DNA of 34,254 nucleotides from Methanomassiliicoccales archaeon (GCA_028682915.1 JAJRAN010000036.1:1-34254), one strand, 5' to 3'; positions 2,511 to 11,128 are shown, counted from the stretch's first letter. Notes: a model not told the origin generated them from the letters alone. Numbers and translations: made by a program.

Positions 2511-2702
2511 ATGATCATACCGGTTCGATGCTTCACGTGCGGGAAAGTGATTGGCTCCTCATACCAGACCTTCGTCAAGAGGGTGCAGATGGGCGAGGAC
2601 CCACAGCAGGTGCTGGACGATCTCGGCCTCACGAGGTACTGCTGCCGGCGTATGATCGTCTCGCACTCCGACCTGGTGGACGAGATCATCCCCCTGGGTT
2701 GA
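2511..2702 (+). CDS. rpoN: DNA-directed RNA polymerase subunit N (RPB10)
   Basis: [63 protein letters not shown]; CxxC...CCRRM zinc motif. Confidence 0.95.
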
Positions 2703-2733: not shown

Positions 2734-2809
2734 GGGTCTGTGGGGTAGCTTGGTATCCTTCCAGCTTGGGGTGCTGGTGACTCCGGTTCAAATCCGGACA
2801 GACCCACCA
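2734..2809 (+). tRNA. tRNA-Pro (anticodon GGG), 3' CCA encoded
   Basis: GGGTCTG...CAGACCC acceptor stem; CCAGC-TTGGGGT-GCTGG anticodon arm with GGG; TCCGG-TTCAAAT-CCGGA T-arm; discriminator A then CCA at 2807-2809. Confidence 0.93.
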
Positions 2810-2814
2810 TATCA

Positions 2815-2821
2815 TTTTTTT
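2815..2821 (+). terminator. oligo-T terminator after tRNA
   Basis: T7 run directly after the tRNA 3' end; archaeal terminators are T-rich. Confidence 0.5.
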
Positions 2822-2920
2822 GAACGGCTGAATCTTGTTTGATGGTAGAGCCTGATTTTAAAAAAGTTGGGGTACAACATCTTCGATGGATCTATGCCCT
2901 CTTTCTCTTACCAATGATAG

Positions 2921-2930
2921 TTTTTATATC
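2921..2930 (+). promoter_or_regulatory. TATA-like box for the metalloprotease gene
   Basis: TTTTTATATC about 35 bp upstream of ATG 2964. It lies downstream of the ORF-track start at 2886, which favours 2964 as the real start. Confidence 0.5.
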
Positions 2931-2963
2931 CGAACGGTCAAGTACTATTTTGGGGAAGCAGGA

Positions 2964-5798
2964 ATGAGCAATAAGGTGAAGGTCAGTCCTCAGCCAATTG
3001 ATGAAGTAGGTTCTAAGGTACCCATATCAAGACGCTCTGATAGAGTAAGAATCAATCTACCTGACGAAATGGTTGCTGGGTCGCATATAAAGATAGCTCT
3101 TTATAATTCGGGCAACAGCAGGATCTCTCCCAGCGATTTCACTCTTAAATTCGTCGGAGATGCAGGTGGCTGTGAGATATCCAAGGCTTTAGAAACGACA
3201 AAAAAAGGCAAGGAGCTCATCATCCTACTCATCGCCGGTTCTGTACCTGGAGAGAGAATACTCCAAGTAACCTTGAAGCGAGCCCCTAGTAGACCTTTTA
3301 AATTCACATTCAAGGTGATCCGCCACAGGTCCAACTCACCTGAGGGGGCGGGTTTCAACGTTCAAGGTTTGGATCCGGCCCACCGGCCAAAGATCCCCTC
3401 ATTCGCAGGCATTAGCCCCCAGTCTGAAGGCTACCCAGGAGGAGGGGGAGCTCAGAATGTACTGAATTTTGGTATAATCAGGATCGGTTGGGATTATGGG
3501 GGCTACTCCCATCCTTTCGAATCCGACAAGGACTGGACTGCTCTGTTCGGAGGAGTAGGAGGGACGGGAAGTGGGGGTAGGAACGTCAAAACCTACTACG
3601 AAGAGATGCAGAACTCCTTCACCATACAATGCCAAGAGATCGGAACGTACCAAATGGAAGTGAACTGGAACGATTGCTTCTGGCTCGGGGCAAGTTATCA
3701 CTGGTTCCCGAACGAAAATCTCCTGGATCACATCTTCGATATGGCCAAAGGCGACATCGAGACATTGGGAGAAGAGTTCGTCAAGAGTCTGCACGGCCTC
3801 TTCATCGTGGTCATGCCTAGCCCGCACAATCAGGCGGTTTGGCCATGCTGCTTCGGGCCAAGGAACGTAAAAGTCGCTTATTCTGAAGGTTCCCCAGAGA
3901 TTTCGAAATATATCTATGGCATCTTCGTTTCAGAGGATATCGACGAGCCTGGAACCGCGACCTACGTACCTGATTATGACCTGGTCGAGAGAGCCGCACA
4001 TGAAATCGGCCATACGTTGGGCATGCAGGACCTTCGGATGACCACGTCCCCAGGGGGCGGATCAGCGCCTTTGAACCCGATCAACGATTGGGACCTTATG
4101 TGCGATGAGAAGTTGCTCCCCCAGATTGCCTTGGCGAATCGAGTCCATCATTCTTTAATTCCTGACACCCGGCTCTACGGGCACTCTATCTACCATCCCA
4201 ATCAGGGCGTTGTCCAATCATCTGGTCAGGGATCGAACCGTCCTGTCGCAAGCTACCGAGGTAAGCGCGGCCTAACATTCGTTCCAGAAGGAGATGTTCA
4301 AGCCTCGGAGGCTAGCCTAGAACCTCTGGAGACGGTAGCGAGCGTCGGCCCTAGCGGGTTAGAGATAGTCATCACGGAAGGATGGAGCCTTTTCTTCGAG
4401 TTTAGGAAAAGGCAGAGCGGCCAAATCAGTGACCAACATCTTGATAGAATCGCTCATGTCCAATCCAGCGCAGAGCAGGCCCTCATAGGCATGCAGAGCA
4501 AGCTTTGGGGCAAATTTGCACCATACAGGCAGGTCGAAATGTTACCGCATTTCCATGATGGTCTGCCTTTCTTCACGTCAATTAATCTCAACGAATCGTT
4601 TGAGGACATCGTGGTCAAGACCCTTGAGACCAGTCCAGTTGGAGATATTCAATCGGAGAGGAAGTTGGGATTGAGCGTTAAGTTCGTGGGCATCGAGAAT
4701 GGTTGCGCAAAAGTCGCCATACGAACCGTCCAACCACCAGAAAAGAAGGTCGATCCCTGCATCCATCCATGGAAGGGCTACGATGAATGGATTAGCCCGG
4801 ACATCAGGGTAGAGAACGATCCTGGCACTGACAACATAGTCCCAGGCCTCATGAACACCATCAAGCTGACGGTCTGGAACGCTGGCAATGACATATTGAG
4901 TGGCATAAGCGTCGACCTTTTCGCGATGGACATGGCGCTGGGCCACCCATGGGACATCTGGGACACCACGCCCATAGGCACCGTGAGAATGGGAGCGGGG
5001 GATCCACCGATAGCTCCGGGCGGGTCCCAGGAATTCTCGTTCGACTATCTCGCCCCAGAAAAGAATGAAGTCTCCGATGATGAGGAACGGAGCGATATCA
5101 AGTGCGGGACCATCATCGCCGCAAAGATCAGGGAGCTGAGCGGCGAGATCACTCGGGAAAATAATTTCGCACAATCACGTTTCATCTCCCTGACCGCGAT
5201 TAAGGAGTCGCTTGAGGAGTACTCCCGCGAGGTCACTGGGTTCGAGGTCACCAATCCTTACGATAGACCTGTGCAGATCTTCATCACCGCCAGACAGACA
5301 AGCCCGAACTACCGGATCCTGTTGGACAAGTCATGGCTCCGTCTTGGGCCTAATGAAACCAAGACCTTCGTAGCGCACTTCGAGTACAGACCTCAAGGAA
5401 GAGCGGTGAGCACCAGCGATGATGTGAATTGGGTCACAATCGAGTCCTTTGTCAGGGACCCTCTCGATGCCGATGGGCATCTTAAGCCTCTGTCTGGAAT
5501 CAATGTCAAGGTCTCCAATGCAATTTCGACTTCCATGAGGTTGAGCATTAACCGGACGACGCTCAGAGCGGAGGTCAAGGACTACAAGGGTAAATTGTTG
5601 AAGTCAGGGAAATTGATATTTTTGGTGGGCAGAGGCAAACCGCTTGATTCGAAGAAAATGAGATTCGAGGTCAATGTCAAGGAGAGAATAGGTGAGAATA
5701 TCGAGATCGAGCTTCCGAGAGGTTGGCAAAATATCAAGGCTTATTTCATTCCTCCTGCTGGATACGCAAGATGTGAATCCACCTTGGCTCACAAATAG
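2964..5798 (+). CDS. Large zinc metalloprotease-like protein (M6-like HExxHxxGxxD) with CARDB-like C-terminal region
   Basis: HEIGHTLGMQD motif (3999-4031) followed by NPINDWDLMC, similar to the WDLM of M6 peptidases; IRVENDPGTDNIVPGLMNTIKLTVWNAGND resembles CARDB. No N-terminal hydrophobic segment (MSNKVKVSPQPIDEVGSKVPISRRSDRV). Confidence 0.7.
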   Translation: MSNKVKVSPQPIDEVGSKVPISRRSDRVRINLPDEMVAGSHIKIALYNSGNSRISPSDFTLKFVGDAGGCEISKALETTKKGKELIILLIAGSVPGERILQVTLKRAPSRPFKFTFKVIRHRSNSPEGAGFNVQGLDPAHRPKIPSFAGISPQSEGYPGGGGAQNVLNFGIIRIGWDYGGYSHPFESDKDWTALFGGVGGTGSGGRNVKTYYEEMQNSFTIQCQEIGTYQMEVNWNDCFWLGASYHWFPNENLLDHIFDMAKGDIETLGEEFVKSLHGLFIVVMPSPHNQAVWPCCFGPRNVKVAYSEGSPEISKYIYGIFVSEDIDEPGTATYVPDYDLVERAAHEIGHTLGMQDLRMTTSPGGGSAPLNPINDWDLMCDEKLLPQIALANRVHHSLIPDTRLYGHSIYHPNQGVVQSSGQGSNRPVASYRGKRGLTFVPEGDVQASEASLEPLETVASVGPSGLEIVITEGWSLFFEFRKRQSGQISDQHLDRIAHVQSSAEQALIGMQSKLWGKFAPYRQVEMLPHFHDGLPFFTSINLNESFEDIVVKTLETSPVGDIQSERKLGLSVKFVGIENGCAKVAIRTVQPPEKKVDPCIHPWKGYDEWISPDIRVENDPGTDNIVPGLMNTIKLTVWNAGNDILSGISVDLFAMDMALGHPWDIWDTTPIGTVRMGAGDPPIAPGGSQEFSFDYLAPEKNEVSDDEERSDIKCGTIIAAKIRELSGEITRENNFAQSRFISLTAIKESLEEYSREVTGFEVTNPYDRPVQIFITARQTSPNYRILLDKSWLRLGPNETKTFVAHFEYRPQGRAVSTSDDVNWVTIESFVRDPLDADGHLKPLSGINVKVSNAISTSMRLSINRTTLRAEVKDYKGKLLKSGKLIFLVGRGKPLDSKKMRFEVNVKERIGENIEIELPRGWQNIKAYFIPPAGYARCESTLAHK

Positions 5799-5855
5799 AT
5801 AAAGAACGTCGGAAGGGGTTTGGCAGGCGTTGGCGACTTATTGTTATGCCCTACC

Positions 5856-6695
5856 CTACGGAAGGAGCATGCCTCCACCAGGATATAGACCACCGCCACC
5901 TGGATAAAGGCCTCCACCACCTGGATAGAGCCCACCTCCTCCAGGATAGAGCCCGCCACCACCTGGATATAATCCGCCCCCGCCTTGATTCACTGTACCA
6001 GTACCTGGATATAGACCACCGCCACCAGAGGACGGTCCGCCTGCTTCAAGAGCCGTGGACAAAGCGGCGACTATGGAGTCCCAGACCATTCTGGCCTCCG
6101 ATGGATCAATATCCACCCTGATGAAAAGTCTCGTGTACTTGTCCCAGGTGTTCAGATATAGCTCCTCGAGATTCCTAGGCCTGGTAAAGCTAGATGCGCG
6201 GAAGGCATTCGCAACGACGAATTTCTTGATCACCTCATCGTTCAGGGTCTTGAAACCTGACCAATCGGTCTGCAACGGATTCTTGTCTAAAACCCATTTC
6301 CCAACCAAGCGGAGTGAATTCAGGAGGAGCTGATCCTTGTAGCGCTCAATCCTCAGTTCCTTGACCGTTTCCTCCATTGCTCCGACACACTGCAGCACCG
6401 AGGTATGTACCTTGATGGCTTCCTTCATCTGCGCCTTGAGCTTGTCGAGGTCTTCGCAATTATCAATCTGGCTTTCGTCGAATAGGGATGCGCTCGATTG
6501 GCGCTCCGCTCCTACCCTATCGATAAGGTCCTGAATGCGATCCAGCTTTGGGAGGATTGCCAATTCGACAAGTTTGTTGATCGGATTGACCCCGAGAAGT
6601 TGGTTCGGGTCTGTGATCTTATAGCTGTCAAGCAACTCTCTGCCATTCATTGGCAAGAATGGTACTTCATCTAGCCCCATTATCTTCCCCTCCAT
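5856..6695 (-). CDS. Uncharacterised protein with C-terminal LYPGGGG tandem repeats
   Basis: 279-aa ORF; charged/helical N-terminal about 230 aa then GGGGLYPGTGTVNQGGGGLYPGGGGLYPGGGGLYPGGGGLYPGGGGLYPGGGMLLP. Confidence 0.75.
   Translation of the reverse strand: MEGKIMGLDEVPFLPMNGRELLDSYKITDPNQLLGVNPINKLVELAILPKLDRIQDLIDRVGAERQSSASLFDESQIDNCEDLDKLKAQMKEAIKVHTSVLQCVGAMEETVKELRIERYKDQLLLNSLRLVGKWVLDKNPLQTDWSGFKTLNDEVIKKFVVANAFRASSFTRPRNLEELYLNTWDKYTRLFIRVDIDPSEARMVWDSIVAALSTALEAGGPSSGGGGLYPGTGTVNQGGGGLYPGGGGLYPGGGGLYPGGGGLYPGGGGLYPGGGMLLP
5866..6030 (-). repeat. Degenerate 21-nt tandem repeat encoding LYPGGGG
   Basis: About five consecutive LYPGGG(G) units plus one upstream GGGGLYPG; nucleotide units differ mostly at synonymous positions. 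Confidence 0.85.
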
Positions 6696-6870
6696 TAGAT
6701 TTCAACGAAGAGCAGCCCCCTTCGCCATTTGTACATGGGATTCCGGGTTTATATGTATCTTTTCCCAGCGGAGGGGGCACATTGGACCAGCGCATCCAAC
6801 GGACCCAGCAATAACAGAAAAGGATATTAGCATCGCATCGCCTGATAAGGCAGGGGAAGGAGAAACTAGT

Positions 6871-9408
6871 ATGCCCGCCCTGGCCATGTCCAATACAAGC
6901 GCCTCAATCCCATTTTCAGGGAGGGCAAGGGAGCTGGACATCCTCTCAGAGAACTTGCTATCTGCGGCCGCTGGTAAGGGATTGACCGTCCTGGTTTCAG
7001 GGGAGGCTGGAATCGGTAAGACTCGCCTTCTTGAGGAGCTAAGGCTCGTAGCCGAATCCATGGGATTCGTGACCGCGATGGGGCATTGTATTCCAGGGCC
7101 TCCCTGCCCTTATCTGCCCTTCCAAGAGGCTTTCAGGTCTCTCAGGTCTTCGTCGCAGAGATACGGGGTACAGAATTGGTTGGAGGGCGATGGGCAGACC
7201 AAGAGCGTGGCTGCTCGGTTTGAGCAAGACGACGTGACGGCTGACGATCTCTTTACCTTCCAATCTGGAAAATTCACAGCAGACCAAGCCTTCTTCCAAA
7301 GGGAGAATGTCTTCTTCTCTAACTTGGAGTTCCTTAAGGGAAGGGCCGAGAACACGCCGGTCCTACTAATCGTTGAGGACCTCCACTGGTCCGATTCCGC
7401 CACGGTCCAGCTACTGCACTTCATCGCCAGCAATATCAGCAAGAGCCGAATAATGGTGATCGGCACTTACAGGCCGGAGGACCTTGTGGCGAAGGGAGAT
7501 GAGCCGATGCATCCCTTCTTGGCCGAACTCGCTGGCATGAGGAGAGAGGGCTTCATCAGGGAAATGAGATTGACTCCCTTGGATAACGAGGCGATCGAGA
7601 GGGCGCTCAGGGGATTGCTCGGAGGACCTTTGGACGATGAAGTGAAAACGAGGATGGCGGAGGAAGCTGAGGGGAATCCACTCTACGCTCTGGAGATGGC
7701 GAGACTCCTAGTCATGGAAGGGGCCTTGGAGCTGAATGACGGCGTCTGGAGATTCGGAGCGAAGGCGGTGACGTCCATCCCGCCCAACATCAAGGACGTG
7801 GTCCTTCGGCGGATTGAGAGGCTGAGCCATTCCGAGAGGCAATTGATCGAGTGCGCATCGGTCATCGGGGTCGACTTCGACCCCTTCGTGGTGATGGAGC
7901 TCCTGCCCAAAGCCGCAAATGAGACCATCTCCGCCTTCAACCGGATCCAGGAGAATCATGGGCTGCTGGTCGTTTCTGAGGATAAATTCCACTTCAGCCA
8001 CGAGCTGATTCGACGGGTATGTTACGAGAGCATTTCGCCCCAAAGGAGGAAGGAGCTGCACAGGAGGACTGCATCCATCCTCGAGTCCACCTATTCCGAG
8101 GTCTGCTCCCTGCCGCAGCTATCTTATCATTTCTATGAATCTGGAAACAGGGAGAAATGCTTCCGCTACTCCGTTCTTGCCGGTAAGAGGTGCAATGCGA
8201 AATGCGCTGGCCATGAAGGAATCCTGTACTTCAAGAGAGCTCTGGAGGTCGCTTCAGCGGTCGACTCATCTAATCCAAGCTTGAGGGAGGCCAAGGAAGG
8301 ACTCGGCGACGCATATTATGAGAAGGGCGATTACCAGGCCTCCTACAATGAGTTCGAGGAGCTCCTGAATGAGGAATCTACCGACGACGAGCGGGCGAGG
8401 CTGCTGAGGAAATGCAGCGATTGCTGGGCCCCTCAGAAACTCGGCAAGGGCGAGATCACCAGGCACATTGAATATCTGCAGAAGGCCCTAGCCTGCGTTA
8501 ACGTGAGCAGGAAGGAAAGGGCCGAGATCCTTCGAAACGCTTCGGTGGAGGCCATTTGGAGGGGAGACTTCAAGGAGGCGAACGGGCTGAGCATGGAGGC
8601 CGTCGGGCTCCTTAAGGAGGAGGGGGAGATGGAGATTGCCTCTTGGGAGCTCTCGTGCCATGCCTTTGTCTACATCTGCGAGGGGAATCCCACACAGGCC
8701 TTGATCGAGCTTAACGAAGCGAGGGAGATATTATTGGACCGCCCATGGCCGAGGGGCGAGGTCGAGAATGAGTTCTTCCAAGGAATGGCTCACCTCACCC
8801 TCGGGAGGGAGGAGGACGCCATCGAGCACTTTTCCGAGGCACGGGATTTGGCTGAGAAGCTCGGTGACAGGTACATTGAGTCATGGATCCAATTCTATGT
8901 CTCCTTGATCTTCGAAATGAAGGGAGAATACGGTGTCGCTGAAACCCTGGCGGAGCACGCGAGGAACTCAGCCTTCCAGTCCAACAACCTCAATCTGGCG
9001 GCGATGATCGATTCTCTGCTCGTCCATATCTATGGAACCACCCACCAAGCCGAGGCCGCTGAAGATCGGTATTCTGAGATCCTTAGAATCGTCAGACCCG
9101 ACCTCCGAGTGAAATCGCCGGTGTGGGGCCTTATCGAGATGGCGAAGGCAGAGATGCTCAACCTCTGGGATGATGAGGGCTGCTTGGCCGCCTACGCGAA
9201 CGGGATCAAGCTCCTGACCGGGGTCCAGATGGGTTCCTTCTACAGGGGGGTGGCTAGAACGTGGTTCGCGGAAGGGAGATCGAGGCACGACCCAGAGATG
9301 GCACGGTCAGAATTGCTATTGGCGAAGGAGGATTTCGTCAGCTTGTCCAACCATCGATACGCGGCGAAAGTTGACAAGATGCTGGCGTTGATCCATCTTG
9401 CGGAATGA
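6871..9408 (+). CDS. STAND/AAA ATPase with C-terminal TPR-like repeats
   Basis: Walker A GEAGIGKT, Walker B PVLLIVEDLHWSD, AAA_16-like layout; alpha-helical TPR-like second half (GDAYYEKGDYQASYNEFEELL, GMAHLTLGREEDAIEHFSEARDLAEKLGD). Alternative ATG at 6886. Confidence 0.85.
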   Translation: MPALAMSNTSASIPFSGRARELDILSENLLSAAAGKGLTVLVSGEAGIGKTRLLEELRLVAESMGFVTAMGHCIPGPPCPYLPFQEAFRSLRSSSQRYGVQNWLEGDGQTKSVAARFEQDDVTADDLFTFQSGKFTADQAFFQRENVFFSNLEFLKGRAENTPVLLIVEDLHWSDSATVQLLHFIASNISKSRIMVIGTYRPEDLVAKGDEPMHPFLAELAGMRREGFIREMRLTPLDNEAIERALRGLLGGPLDDEVKTRMAEEAEGNPLYALEMARLLVMEGALELNDGVWRFGAKAVTSIPPNIKDVVLRRIERLSHSERQLIECASVIGVDFDPFVVMELLPKAANETISAFNRIQENHGLLVVSEDKFHFSHELIRRVCYESISPQRRKELHRRTASILESTYSEVCSLPQLSYHFYESGNREKCFRYSVLAGKRCNAKCAGHEGILYFKRALEVASAVDSSNPSLREAKEGLGDAYYEKGDYQASYNEFEELLNEESTDDERARLLRKCSDCWAPQKLGKGEITRHIEYLQKALACVNVSRKERAEILRNASVEAIWRGDFKEANGLSMEAVGLLKEEGEMEIASWELSCHAFVYICEGNPTQALIELNEAREILLDRPWPRGEVENEFFQGMAHLTLGREEDAIEHFSEARDLAEKLGDRYIESWIQFYVSLIFEMKGEYGVAETLAEHARNSAFQSNNLNLAAMIDSLLVHIYGTTHQAEAAEDRYSEILRIVRPDLRVKSPVWGLIEMAKAEMLNLWDDEGCLAAYANGIKLLTGVQMGSFYRGVARTWFAEGRSRHDPEMARSELLLAKEDFVSLSNHRYAAKVDKMLALIHLAE

Positions 9409-9432: not shown

Positions 9433-10284
9433 TCAATCAGGGGTCTGTCCAATCACGGTAGGGTTTTCTTGATGGGCGCACCATTCGGTGAAGGACCCTT
9501 CGAATAGCCTGACATTTGGATAGCCCAATGCCCATTTCAAGACGCAGAGCTGGGCCGCGGCTTTCCTTCCACTCCCGCAATGGCATATTACCTCTTTCTC
9601 CCTAGTCACGTTCAACCTTTCCAGGATTCCCATCATATGGCTGGCATCCCTGAGTTTGCATAGGTTGCCGGCCTCGAACGCCTCAGACCACGGTATGTTC
9701 AATGCCCCGGGGATGTGCCCCCGCTTAGGCCAGTAAGAGCTGCCAGCGTACTGGTCAGCAGGCCTTGAATCAAGATGTGCCACATGGGGACGCCCCTTGA
9801 TGAGGCGGAATTCTTCGTAATCGACCGAAAGGCCGGTTCTGGTTCTCGCCACGAACCTGGATCTCTCGATTGCTGGGTACCTGGTCTCGATCTCCCTATC
9901 TTCTTGCAGCCAATCATCAAAGCCTCCATCAAGGACATACACCTCGCCGTGCCCATAGCGTACCAGCGAGTAGGCGAGCATCGGCGGGGGGACTCCGTCC
10001 CCCAATGGAATGCCAGGCACCGCCCTCCCATAAACAACAATCGGTCTCTCTATGTCGACACCTACGGTTGAAAGAACAGAGCTCGCCAGTGGGTCGTCCA
10101 GCCAAACATGGGGCAAGCCTCCCCGGCTGAGCCTAAGGCTCTCTTCGTTCAGATAGACGGCTCCCGGGATGTGACCGCGAATATAGTCATGCACGCTCGG
10201 TTGGCAATCGATGACTGTGAACGCGCCAAGTCGCCCTTGGAGCCAATCGGTGCTGACCCATTTGAAAACGGGGCCATTGGACAT
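9433..10284 (-). CDS. Two-domain rhodanese / thiosulfate sulfurtransferase
   Basis: VIDCQPSVHDYIRGHIPGAVYL ... VAHLDSRPADQYAGSSYWPKRGHIPGALNIPWSEAF ... CHCGSGRKAA active-site loop. Confidence 0.9.
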   Translation of the reverse strand: MSNGPVFKWVSTDWLQGRLGAFTVIDCQPSVHDYIRGHIPGAVYLNEESLRLSRGGLPHVWLDDPLASSVLSTVGVDIERPIVVYGRAVPGIPLGDGVPPPMLAYSLVRYGHGEVYVLDGGFDDWLQEDREIETRYPAIERSRFVARTRTGLSVDYEEFRLIKGRPHVAHLDSRPADQYAGSSYWPKRGHIPGALNIPWSEAFEAGNLCKLRDASHMMGILERLNVTREKEVICHCGSGRKAAAQLCVLKWALGYPNVRLFEGSFTEWCAHQENPTVIGQTPD

Positions 10285-10414: not shown

Positions 10415-11128
10415 ATGGTGAGGCGCAAGATAATCAGGGTCGATGAAGCGAAATGCACCGGTTGTGGAGAATGTGCTATCACCTGCGCCGAGGGCGCGAT
10501 CGAAATCATCGACGGCAAGGCCAAGGTAATCAACGAGGTCTACTGCGATGGCCTAGGGGCTTGTATTGGCGAGTGTCCAGAAGGTGCTCTCACCATCGAG
10601 GAGAGGGAAGCACCGGAGTTCGACGAGCACAAGGTCAAGGAGCATCTTTCGAAAAAGGCGGAAAAGGAGCCACATATGATGGCCTGCCCTGGCTCCGGCC
10701 CGAGGCGCATCCTCGCTCCCAAAGCTGTGAAGGAAGGGGAGAAGCCCACACCCCAGCTCTCCAATTGGCCGGTGCAGCTGCGGCTCGCCCATGCCCAAGC
10801 TCCTTACTTCAAGAGGGCCAGGCTCCTCATCGCTGCCGACTGCTCCGCCTTCGCATATGCGGCCATGCACTCCGATTTCATCAAGGGAAGGGTGACGGTC
10901 ATCGCCTGCCCCAAGCTCGATGACAACCAGGAGCAGATCGCCAAGCTGACCGATATCTTCTCCATGAACGACATCCAGGACATCAAGTTAGTTAGGATGG
11001 AGGTGCCCTGCTGTGGCGGCCTGAAACTGGTGGTGAAGAAGGCCATGGAGCGGGCGAAGAAGAGGATACCATTAGAAGAGGTGGTGGTCGCTGCTGACGG
11101 CTCCATCATCGAGGGCTCCGTCGCCTGA
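10415..11128 (+). CDS. 4Fe-4S ferredoxin-type iron-sulfur protein
   Basis: CTGCGECAITCAEGAIEI and CDGLGACIGECPEGALTI clusters; later MACPGSGPRR and PCCGG motifs. Confidence 0.9.
   Translation: MVRRKIIRVDEAKCTGCGECAITCAEGAIEIIDGKAKVINEVYCDGLGACIGECPEGALTIEEREAPEFDEHKVKEHLSKKAEKEPHMMACPGSGPRRILAPKAVKEGEKPTPQLSNWPVQLRLAHAQAPYFKRARLLIAADCSAFAYAAMHSDFIKGRVTVIACPKLDDNQEQIAKLTDIFSMNDIQDIKLVRMEVPCCGGLKLVVKKAMERAKKRIPLEEVVVAADGSIIEGSVA

What the first reader, a model, noticed from the sequence alone, without database searches (positions are those of the whole stretch)
2734..9408. Post-tRNA trio: signal-less metalloprotease, LYPGGGG-repeat protein and STAND/TPR ATPase
Seen: directly after tRNA-Pro the composition becomes visibly more AT-rich, and three non-housekeeping genes follow. 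They are a 944-aa HExxHxxGxxD protease with no evident signal peptide or TM segment, a convergent gene with a Gly/Tyr/Pro repeat tail, and an 845-aa STAND-type NTPase divergent from the repeat gene. Established: tRNA genes are common integration sites, and STAND NTPases often act as sensors coupled to effectors, including proteases, in conflict systems. Inference: the trio could be a mobile sensor/effector/scaffold module. Opposing orientations mean it is not a single operon.
Basis: partly seen in the sequence, partly recalled or inferred. Interest (0 to 1): 0.62.

Follow-up and report, generated by a model that had tools for sequence, protein, structure and literature searches.

The report
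Variable gene slot behind archaeal tRNA-Pro
In an unnamed archaeon, the DNA just behind a proline tRNA gene is a slot whose cargo differs in nearly every related genome; here it holds a sensor-type ATPase of a common family with a sister at the same site in one relative, plus two genes found in no other archaeal genome searched, a protease and a protein with a repeated LYPGGGG tail.

Summary
In detail: tRNA-Pro at 2734-2809, then an M6-like metalloprotease (2964-5798, 944 aa, no signal peptide), a convergent 279-aa helical protein with five GLYPGGG repeats, and a divergent 845-aa STAND/TPR ATPase. The "one mobile trio" reading is only partly right. The interval between rpoN/tRNA-Pro and a Fe-S gene is a variable slot in this archaeal family: nearly empty in one congener, holding CRISPR-Cas, an integrase, TBP genes, a papain-like protease plus STANDs, and other cargo elsewhere. 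One sibling carries a 15-nt repeat of the tRNA 3' end. The trio is composite. The STAND has a sister in the same slot in a congener and belongs to a large family. Protease and repeat gene have no homolog in the archaeal genomes searched (390 and 61-175) and are the most atypical genes here in codon usage; only the protease C-terminus matches anything (truncated ORF on a Paenibacillus plasmid). The trio never recurs; one sibling has a non-homologous protease + small protein + STAND in the same slot. The protease's interdomain linker carries YPGGGG, the hexapeptide repeated in its neighbour's tail, suggesting (not showing) that the neighbour binds or is cut by the protease.

The parts
2511..2702 (+). 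rpoN, archaeal RNA polymerase subunit N; conserved left flank of the slot
   Evidence: NCBIfam PRK04016 E 1.6e-32; next to tRNA-Pro in all 20 loci fetched
2734..2809 (+). tRNA-Pro (GGG), CCA-encoding; integration target and left edge of the variable slot
   Evidence: ARAGORN, Rfam RF00005; DNA homology with G001, G002 and G014 ends at 2809/2810
2921..2929 (+). TATA-like TTTTTATAT, possible promoter of the 944-aa form of the protease
   Evidence: read from sequence; inference
2964..5798 (+). 944-aa M6-like metalloprotease without signal peptide: N-terminal beta-sandwich (about 1-121), linker with YPGGGG (157-162), zincin core with HEIGHTLGMQD (346-356) and WDLM Met-turn (376), CARDB-like region (about 611-702), C-terminal domain shared with a Paenibacillus plasmid ORF (728-939)
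   Evidence: no homolog in the other 389 genomes searched in the phylum
3432..3449 (+). codons for YPGGGG in the linker between N-terminal domain and catalytic core
5856..6695 (-). 279-aa protein: predicted helical N-domain (about 1-220) and C-terminal tail with GLYPGGG repeats
   Evidence: no homolog in 60 other relatives (full length) or 174 other genomes of the class (N-domain), or in plasmids, phages and viral contigs
5872..6018 (-). 21-nt repeat array coding for GLYPGGG units; synonymous differences only between the five perfect units
   Evidence: pattern found in no other of 293 genomes
6871..9408 (+). 845-aa STAND-type ATPase with TPR sensor, no fused effector domain: Walker A GEAGIGKTR (residue 44), VEDLHWSD, GTYR, GNPLY (268)
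   Evidence: sister of the G002 STAND in the same slot
9433..10284 (-). two-domain rhodanese; resident gene at the right edge of the slot
   Evidence: present at the same place in G001, G010, G006
10415..11128 (+). Fer4 Fe-S protein gene, conserved right flank of the slot
   Evidence: found downstream of rpoN in 9 of 10 other family genomes with long enough contigs

Best explanation
This is a tRNA-Pro-anchored variable gene slot, and the trio is composite. Shown: between rpoN/tRNA-Pro and a conserved Fe-S gene, family members carry 1.2 to 12.6 kb of differing cargo, and the tRNA 3' end is the left edge. Shown: the STAND ATPase has a sister in the same slot of a congener, while protease and repeat gene are found only in this genome. 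Inferred: the two were inserted more recently, as a pair, beside a resident STAND sensor. Most likely working (inferred, about 20%): the protease is a zymogen-like cytoplasmic M6-type enzyme whose N-terminal beta-sandwich is joined to the catalytic core by a YPGGGG linker. The neighbouring helical protein displays five LYPGGG units as a docking site or competing substrate that restrains the enzyme or is cut by it. The STAND protein works on its own as a TPR-sensor ATPase like MalT/PH0952; any control of the protease by it is unproven.
For: Slot: homology ends at window 2809/2810 in three relatives; interval sizes 1.2-12.6 kb in ten genomes; congener G001 has only 112 bp between tRNA-Pro and the rhodanese; G007 has an integrase gene abutting the tRNA; G006 has a 15-nt direct repeat of the tRNA 3' end 1.75 kb away. 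Composite: STAND sister pair 97/99 with the G002 slot copy; protease absent from 389 other genomes of the phylum, repeat gene absent from 60 relatives and its N-domain from 174 genomes of the class; codon scores of the two genes are the lowest of 23. Pairing: YPGGGG in the protease occurs in 9 of 100,000 shuffles, any tail 6-mer in 46 of 20,000. M6-like core: hhalign E 4.2e-6 against 13 M6-family domains from the same phylum. N-terminal beta-sandwich ending near residue 121. M6 enzymes such as PrtV lose N-terminal residues on maturation (PMC2613228).
Against: No direct repeat of the tRNA end and no integrase remnant in this window, so transfer by tRNA-targeted integration is not shown for this copy. 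The resident rhodanese has nearly the same codon score, so composition alone does not mark the pair as foreign. The G002 contig starts 220 bp before its STAND and that genome is 64% complete, so an undetected protease there cannot be excluded. The YPGGGG match was noticed after the fact in glycine-rich sequence, and the same string is common in AlaX-type proteins of relatives. The M6 match is confined to the active-site region. Models are single-sequence and weak (mean pLDDT 38 and 42).
Confidence: 0.6

Rival explanations
1. The trio is a working conflict (antiviral or inter-element) system: the STAND ATPase senses an invader through its TPRs, oligomerises, and activates the soluble protease, with the repeat protein as adaptor, inhibitor or pro-effector. 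Proteases are exchanged between lineages (M6-like here, papain-like in G014).
For: G014 carries a signal-less papain-like protease (PF00112 E 1.4e-14), a 188-aa protein and STAND genes in the same slot. The slot also holds type I-E CRISPR-Cas in G008. The STAND has no fused effector. AVAST/Hachiman pair ATPase sensors with proteases that activate a partner (PMC12799240).
Against: No co-occurrence of the window families anywhere else; none of the 48 loci holding a STAND homolog has the protease or repeat gene; the STAND family is common and has no PADLOC match beyond a TPR model at E 0.044; relatives of the G014 papain-like gene elsewhere are not beside a STAND; gene orientations differ, no operon.
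Confidence: 0.15
2. Unrelated genes accumulated in a permissive slot: the three neighbours have nothing to do with one another, and the shared YPGGGG is coincidence.
For: Cargo in siblings is a mixture of unrelated genes: TBPs, Trk-type transport, cation efflux, glycosyltransferase. Opposing orientations. YPGGGG is not rare in relatives.
Against: Protease and repeat gene are convergent with 57 bp between stops, both unknown elsewhere, similarly atypical in codon usage, and share the hexapeptide.
Confidence: 0.3
3. The protease and repeat gene are cargo of an archaeal virus or plasmid (e.g. a maturation protease and a structural protein) left at the tRNA after decay of the element.
For: tRNA position, low GC, orphan status, repeat tail; a homolog of the protease C-terminus lies on a Paenibacillus plasmid.
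Against: No match in PHROGs, phages or 2.9 million viral contigs; no integrase or replication gene remains.
Confidence: 0.15

Closest known systems
M6 family peptidases (TIGR03296; immune inhibitor A / PrtV type)
   Same: HExxHxxGxxD followed by a W-x-x-M turn, N-terminal domain before the core, beta-type domains after it
   Different: Below every family cut-off (TIGR03296 18.8 of 110.8 bits); no signal peptide; similarity confined to about 38 active-site residues
MalT / PH0952-type STAND ATPases with TPR sensor (PMC6468293)
   Same: AAA_16 NTPase core with STAND motifs followed by TPRs
   Different: No DNA-binding domain found, no fused effector; only a weak match to TPR_MalT (32 of 45 bits)
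AVAST/Hachiman nuclease-protease pairs (PMC12799240)
   Same: Idea of an ATPase sensor next to a protease and a partner protein
   Different: Protease there is trypsin-like and fused to the sensor or another defence enzyme, partner is an MBL-fold nuclease; none of these found here
tRNA-anchored genomic island hotspots
   Same: tRNA 3' end as edge, variable cargo, integrase and repeat of tRNA end in siblings, empty site
   Different: This window itself lacks the repeat and an integrase

Membership tests
tRNA-anchored integration hotspot | conserved flanks with cargo differing between relatives, and an empty site | tested here: met
tRNA-anchored integration hotspot | direct repeat of the tRNA 3' end and an integrase in this copy | tested here: not met
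   longest repeat 10 nt, chance level; no integrase match in the window; the two features are seen in siblings G006 and G007
M6 peptidase (TIGR03296) | zinc motif HExxHxxGxxD and Met-turn | tested here: met
M6 peptidase (TIGR03296) | family profile above curated cut-off | tested here: not met
   18.8 bits against 110.8; profile of phylum members gives 11.1 bits, best of 200 shuffles 4.4
M6 peptidase (TIGR03296) | zinc-dependent proteolysis with removal of N-terminal prodomain | not testable with these tools
   needs expressed protein
STAND NTPase with TPR sensor | AAA_16/NOD core with Walker A, DLHW Walker B, GNPL motif and C-terminal TPRs | tested here: met
   and the sequence VEDLHWSD read directly
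STAND NTPase with TPR sensor | inducer-driven ATP-dependent oligomerisation | not testable with these tools
   needs biochemistry
AVAST (Avs) antiviral system | match to Avs protein models | tested here: not met
   PADLOC scan: only a TPR model at E 0.044
AVAST (Avs) antiviral system | recurrent co-occurrence of sensor and effector genes | tested here: not met

The most novel reading that the evidence does not exclude
The slot carries an archaeal sensor-protease system with exchangeable proteases (M6-like in this genome, papain-like in G014), in which a helical partner holds the protease in check through repeated copies of the protease's own YPGGGG linker and a STAND ATPase releases it.
Probability: 0.1. 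Interest if true: 0.7.

Novelty: new member of a known kind. Interest (0 to 1): 0.36.

Why it matters
It gives a well-bounded integration slot with an empty site in a group of archaea, so cargo, including CRISPR-Cas, STAND sensors and soluble proteases, can be collected by flank alone. The protease and its repeat-tailed neighbour are unknown elsewhere and make a simple, testable hypothesis about how a cytoplasmic M6-like protease might be restrained.

Tried and rejected
Direct repeat of the tRNA 3' end in the window: none above chance. Homologs of the protease: genome contigs and viral-contig scans with the full protein and with a two-sequence C-terminal alignment found nothing; plasmids gave one C-terminal match, which as a query found only itself. 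PHROGs and PADLOC gave nothing useful. Single-sequence AlphaFold models of protease residues 1-480 and of the repeat protein's first 224 residues were too weak for fold assignment; Foldseek on the latter gave no match below E 1. The 10-nt inverted match to the tRNA end at 9441, between STAND and rhodanese, was rejected as chance. No convincing similarity between the G014 188-aa protein and the repeat protein, or between its papain-like protease and the window protease. YPGGGG as a unique marker was weakened by finding it in AlaX-type proteins of relatives.

Full report
Observation. tRNA-Pro(GGG) lies at 2734-2809. The repeat gene is 5856-6695 on the minus strand and the STAND gene 6871-9408 on the plus strand. 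None of the three proteins has an evident signal peptide or membrane segment by hydropathy. Base composition drops to 49-53% GC over protease and repeat gene; the STAND gene is at 56%. The GLYPGGG units differ only at synonymous sites (44 to 0), which shows that the frame is real and the tail is under selection.

The slot. S9, rpoN and tRNA-Pro stand together in all 20 loci fetched from relatives. On the other side a Fer4 gene follows in 9 of the 10 other family members whose contigs are long enough; the tenth, G005, shows none within the stretch fetched. The distance from rpoN to Fer4 is 7.7 kb here and 1.2, 1.8, 3.3, 3.6, 3.8, 4.8, 5.8, 8.9 and 12.6 kb in the others. DNA similarity to G001, G002 and G014 breaks off at window 2809/2810, the tRNA end, and returns at or near the Fer4 gene. 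G001, of the same genus, has 112 bp between tRNA-Pro and the rhodanese: in effect an empty site. Cargo elsewhere: type I-E CRISPR-Cas in G008, an integrase abutting the tRNA in G007, three TBP genes in G011, Trk-type transport genes in G009 and G003 (naming from sequence, not tested), a histidine kinase/response regulator in G010, PrsW and BspA-type LRR genes in G006, a cation efflux gene in G002. In G006 the last 15 nt of the tRNA recur in direct orientation 1,747 bp away, flanking one gene (expected about 3e-5 per locus). So tRNA-Pro is used as an integration target in this family. The window copy has no such repeat and no integrase remnant.

One module or several? The STAND protein is one of several in its genome, and homologs at E below 1e-20 occur in 119 of 350 genomes of the class. 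Its closest relative is the STAND immediately before Fer4 in G002 (36-38% identity, support 97/99), so this STAND lineage has most likely been in the slot since before those two genomes parted. Protease and repeat gene were not detected in G002 or G001. The protease is absent from all other 389 genomes searched in the phylum, the repeat protein from 60 relatives and its N-domain from 174 genomes of the class. Of 136 loci held, 48 contain a STAND homolog and none contains the repeat gene or the protease apart from the Paenibacillus C-terminal piece; many of these loci carry only 1.5 kb of flank. The trio is therefore best read as a two-gene addition beside a resident STAND. Caveats: G002 is 64% complete, its contig begins 220 bp before the STAND, and the codon score of the resident rhodanese is nearly as low as that of the protease.

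The protease. The core carries HEIGHTLGMQD and INDWDLM. A profile of 13 M6-family domains from the same phylum (found with TIGR03296; aligned) aligns to exactly this stretch with hhalign E 4.2e-6, probability 87%; the STAND protein as control gives 0.3%. Family cut-offs are missed by far, so it is called M6-like, not M6. The first about 121 residues are predicted as a beta-sandwich; a CARDB-like region is a sub-threshold Pfam match. Residues 728-939 match a truncated 270-aa ORF on Paenibacillus plasmid pART37 (26% identity, E 2e-8), so at least the C-terminal module exists in bacteria.

The repeat protein and a possible link. The N-domain is predicted all-helical but the model is weak, and no known family or fold matches. 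The tail repeats GLYPGGG. The protease contains YPGGGG once, at residues 157-162, in the stretch between N-terminal sandwich and catalytic core, the kind of place where M6 proteases are processed: mature PrtV begins at residue 106 of its precursor (PMC2613228). The hexapeptide appears in 9 of 100,000 shuffles of the protease; any 6-mer of the tail in 46 of 20,000. This was noticed after the fact, and YPGGGG is also the conserved string of AlaX-type proteins (family naming from memory of the TxFYPGGGGQ motif). The pairing is a hypothesis at about 20%.

G014 has in the same slot a papain-like protease without signal peptide, a 188-aa protein of unknown family, and two STAND genes, the first divergent from the small protein. 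Neither protease nor small protein resembles those of the window, and papain-like relatives in other genomes have no STAND within their short flanks. Two cases of protease + small protein + STAND in one slot are suggestive given AVAST- and Hachiman-type protease coupling (PMC12799240), but two cases in a slot that collects many things are not a test.

Verdict. A real tRNA-Pro integration slot, with one resident STAND sensor and two orphan genes of unknown function. Ordinary as a class of locus, moderately interesting for the orphan protease and its repeat-tailed neighbour.

Noticed in passing
L050:3762-11880 (G008): A type I-E CRISPR-Cas locus (Cas3, Cse1, Cas7-type CT1975, Cas1) with a long repeat array reaching towards tRNA-Pro occupies the same slot.
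   Followed up: partly
L049:12315-14384 (G011): Three TBP (TATA-binding protein) genes in a row directly behind tRNA-Pro; a possible local amplification of basal transcription factors in a mobile slot (one of the three tested with Pfam).
   Followed up: no
L044:13011-13025 (G006): 15-nt direct repeat of the tRNA-Pro 3' end flanking a BspA-type LRR gene: a small integrated element.
   Followed up: yes
L043:1634-2797 (G007): Phage-type integrase gene whose stop codon directly abuts the 3' end of tRNA-Pro at the same site.
   Followed up: partly
L015:11872-12681 (Paenibacillus sp. 37 plasmid pART37): ORF homologous to the protease C-terminus, starting in mid-domain: probably the remnant of a larger bacterial gene.
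   Followed up: partly
L060:6015-6728, L061:4604-5275, L062:11426-12115: Several STAND homologs in other genomes have the same type of about 230-aa gene (wHTH-like start, hydrophobic end) downstream, a recurrent STAND neighbour not seen in the window.
   Followed up: no
window 6696-6870: Repeat gene and STAND gene diverge from a 175-bp gap with one nearly symmetric TATA-like stretch (TTTATATGTATC / GATACATATAAA) that could serve both.
   Followed up: no
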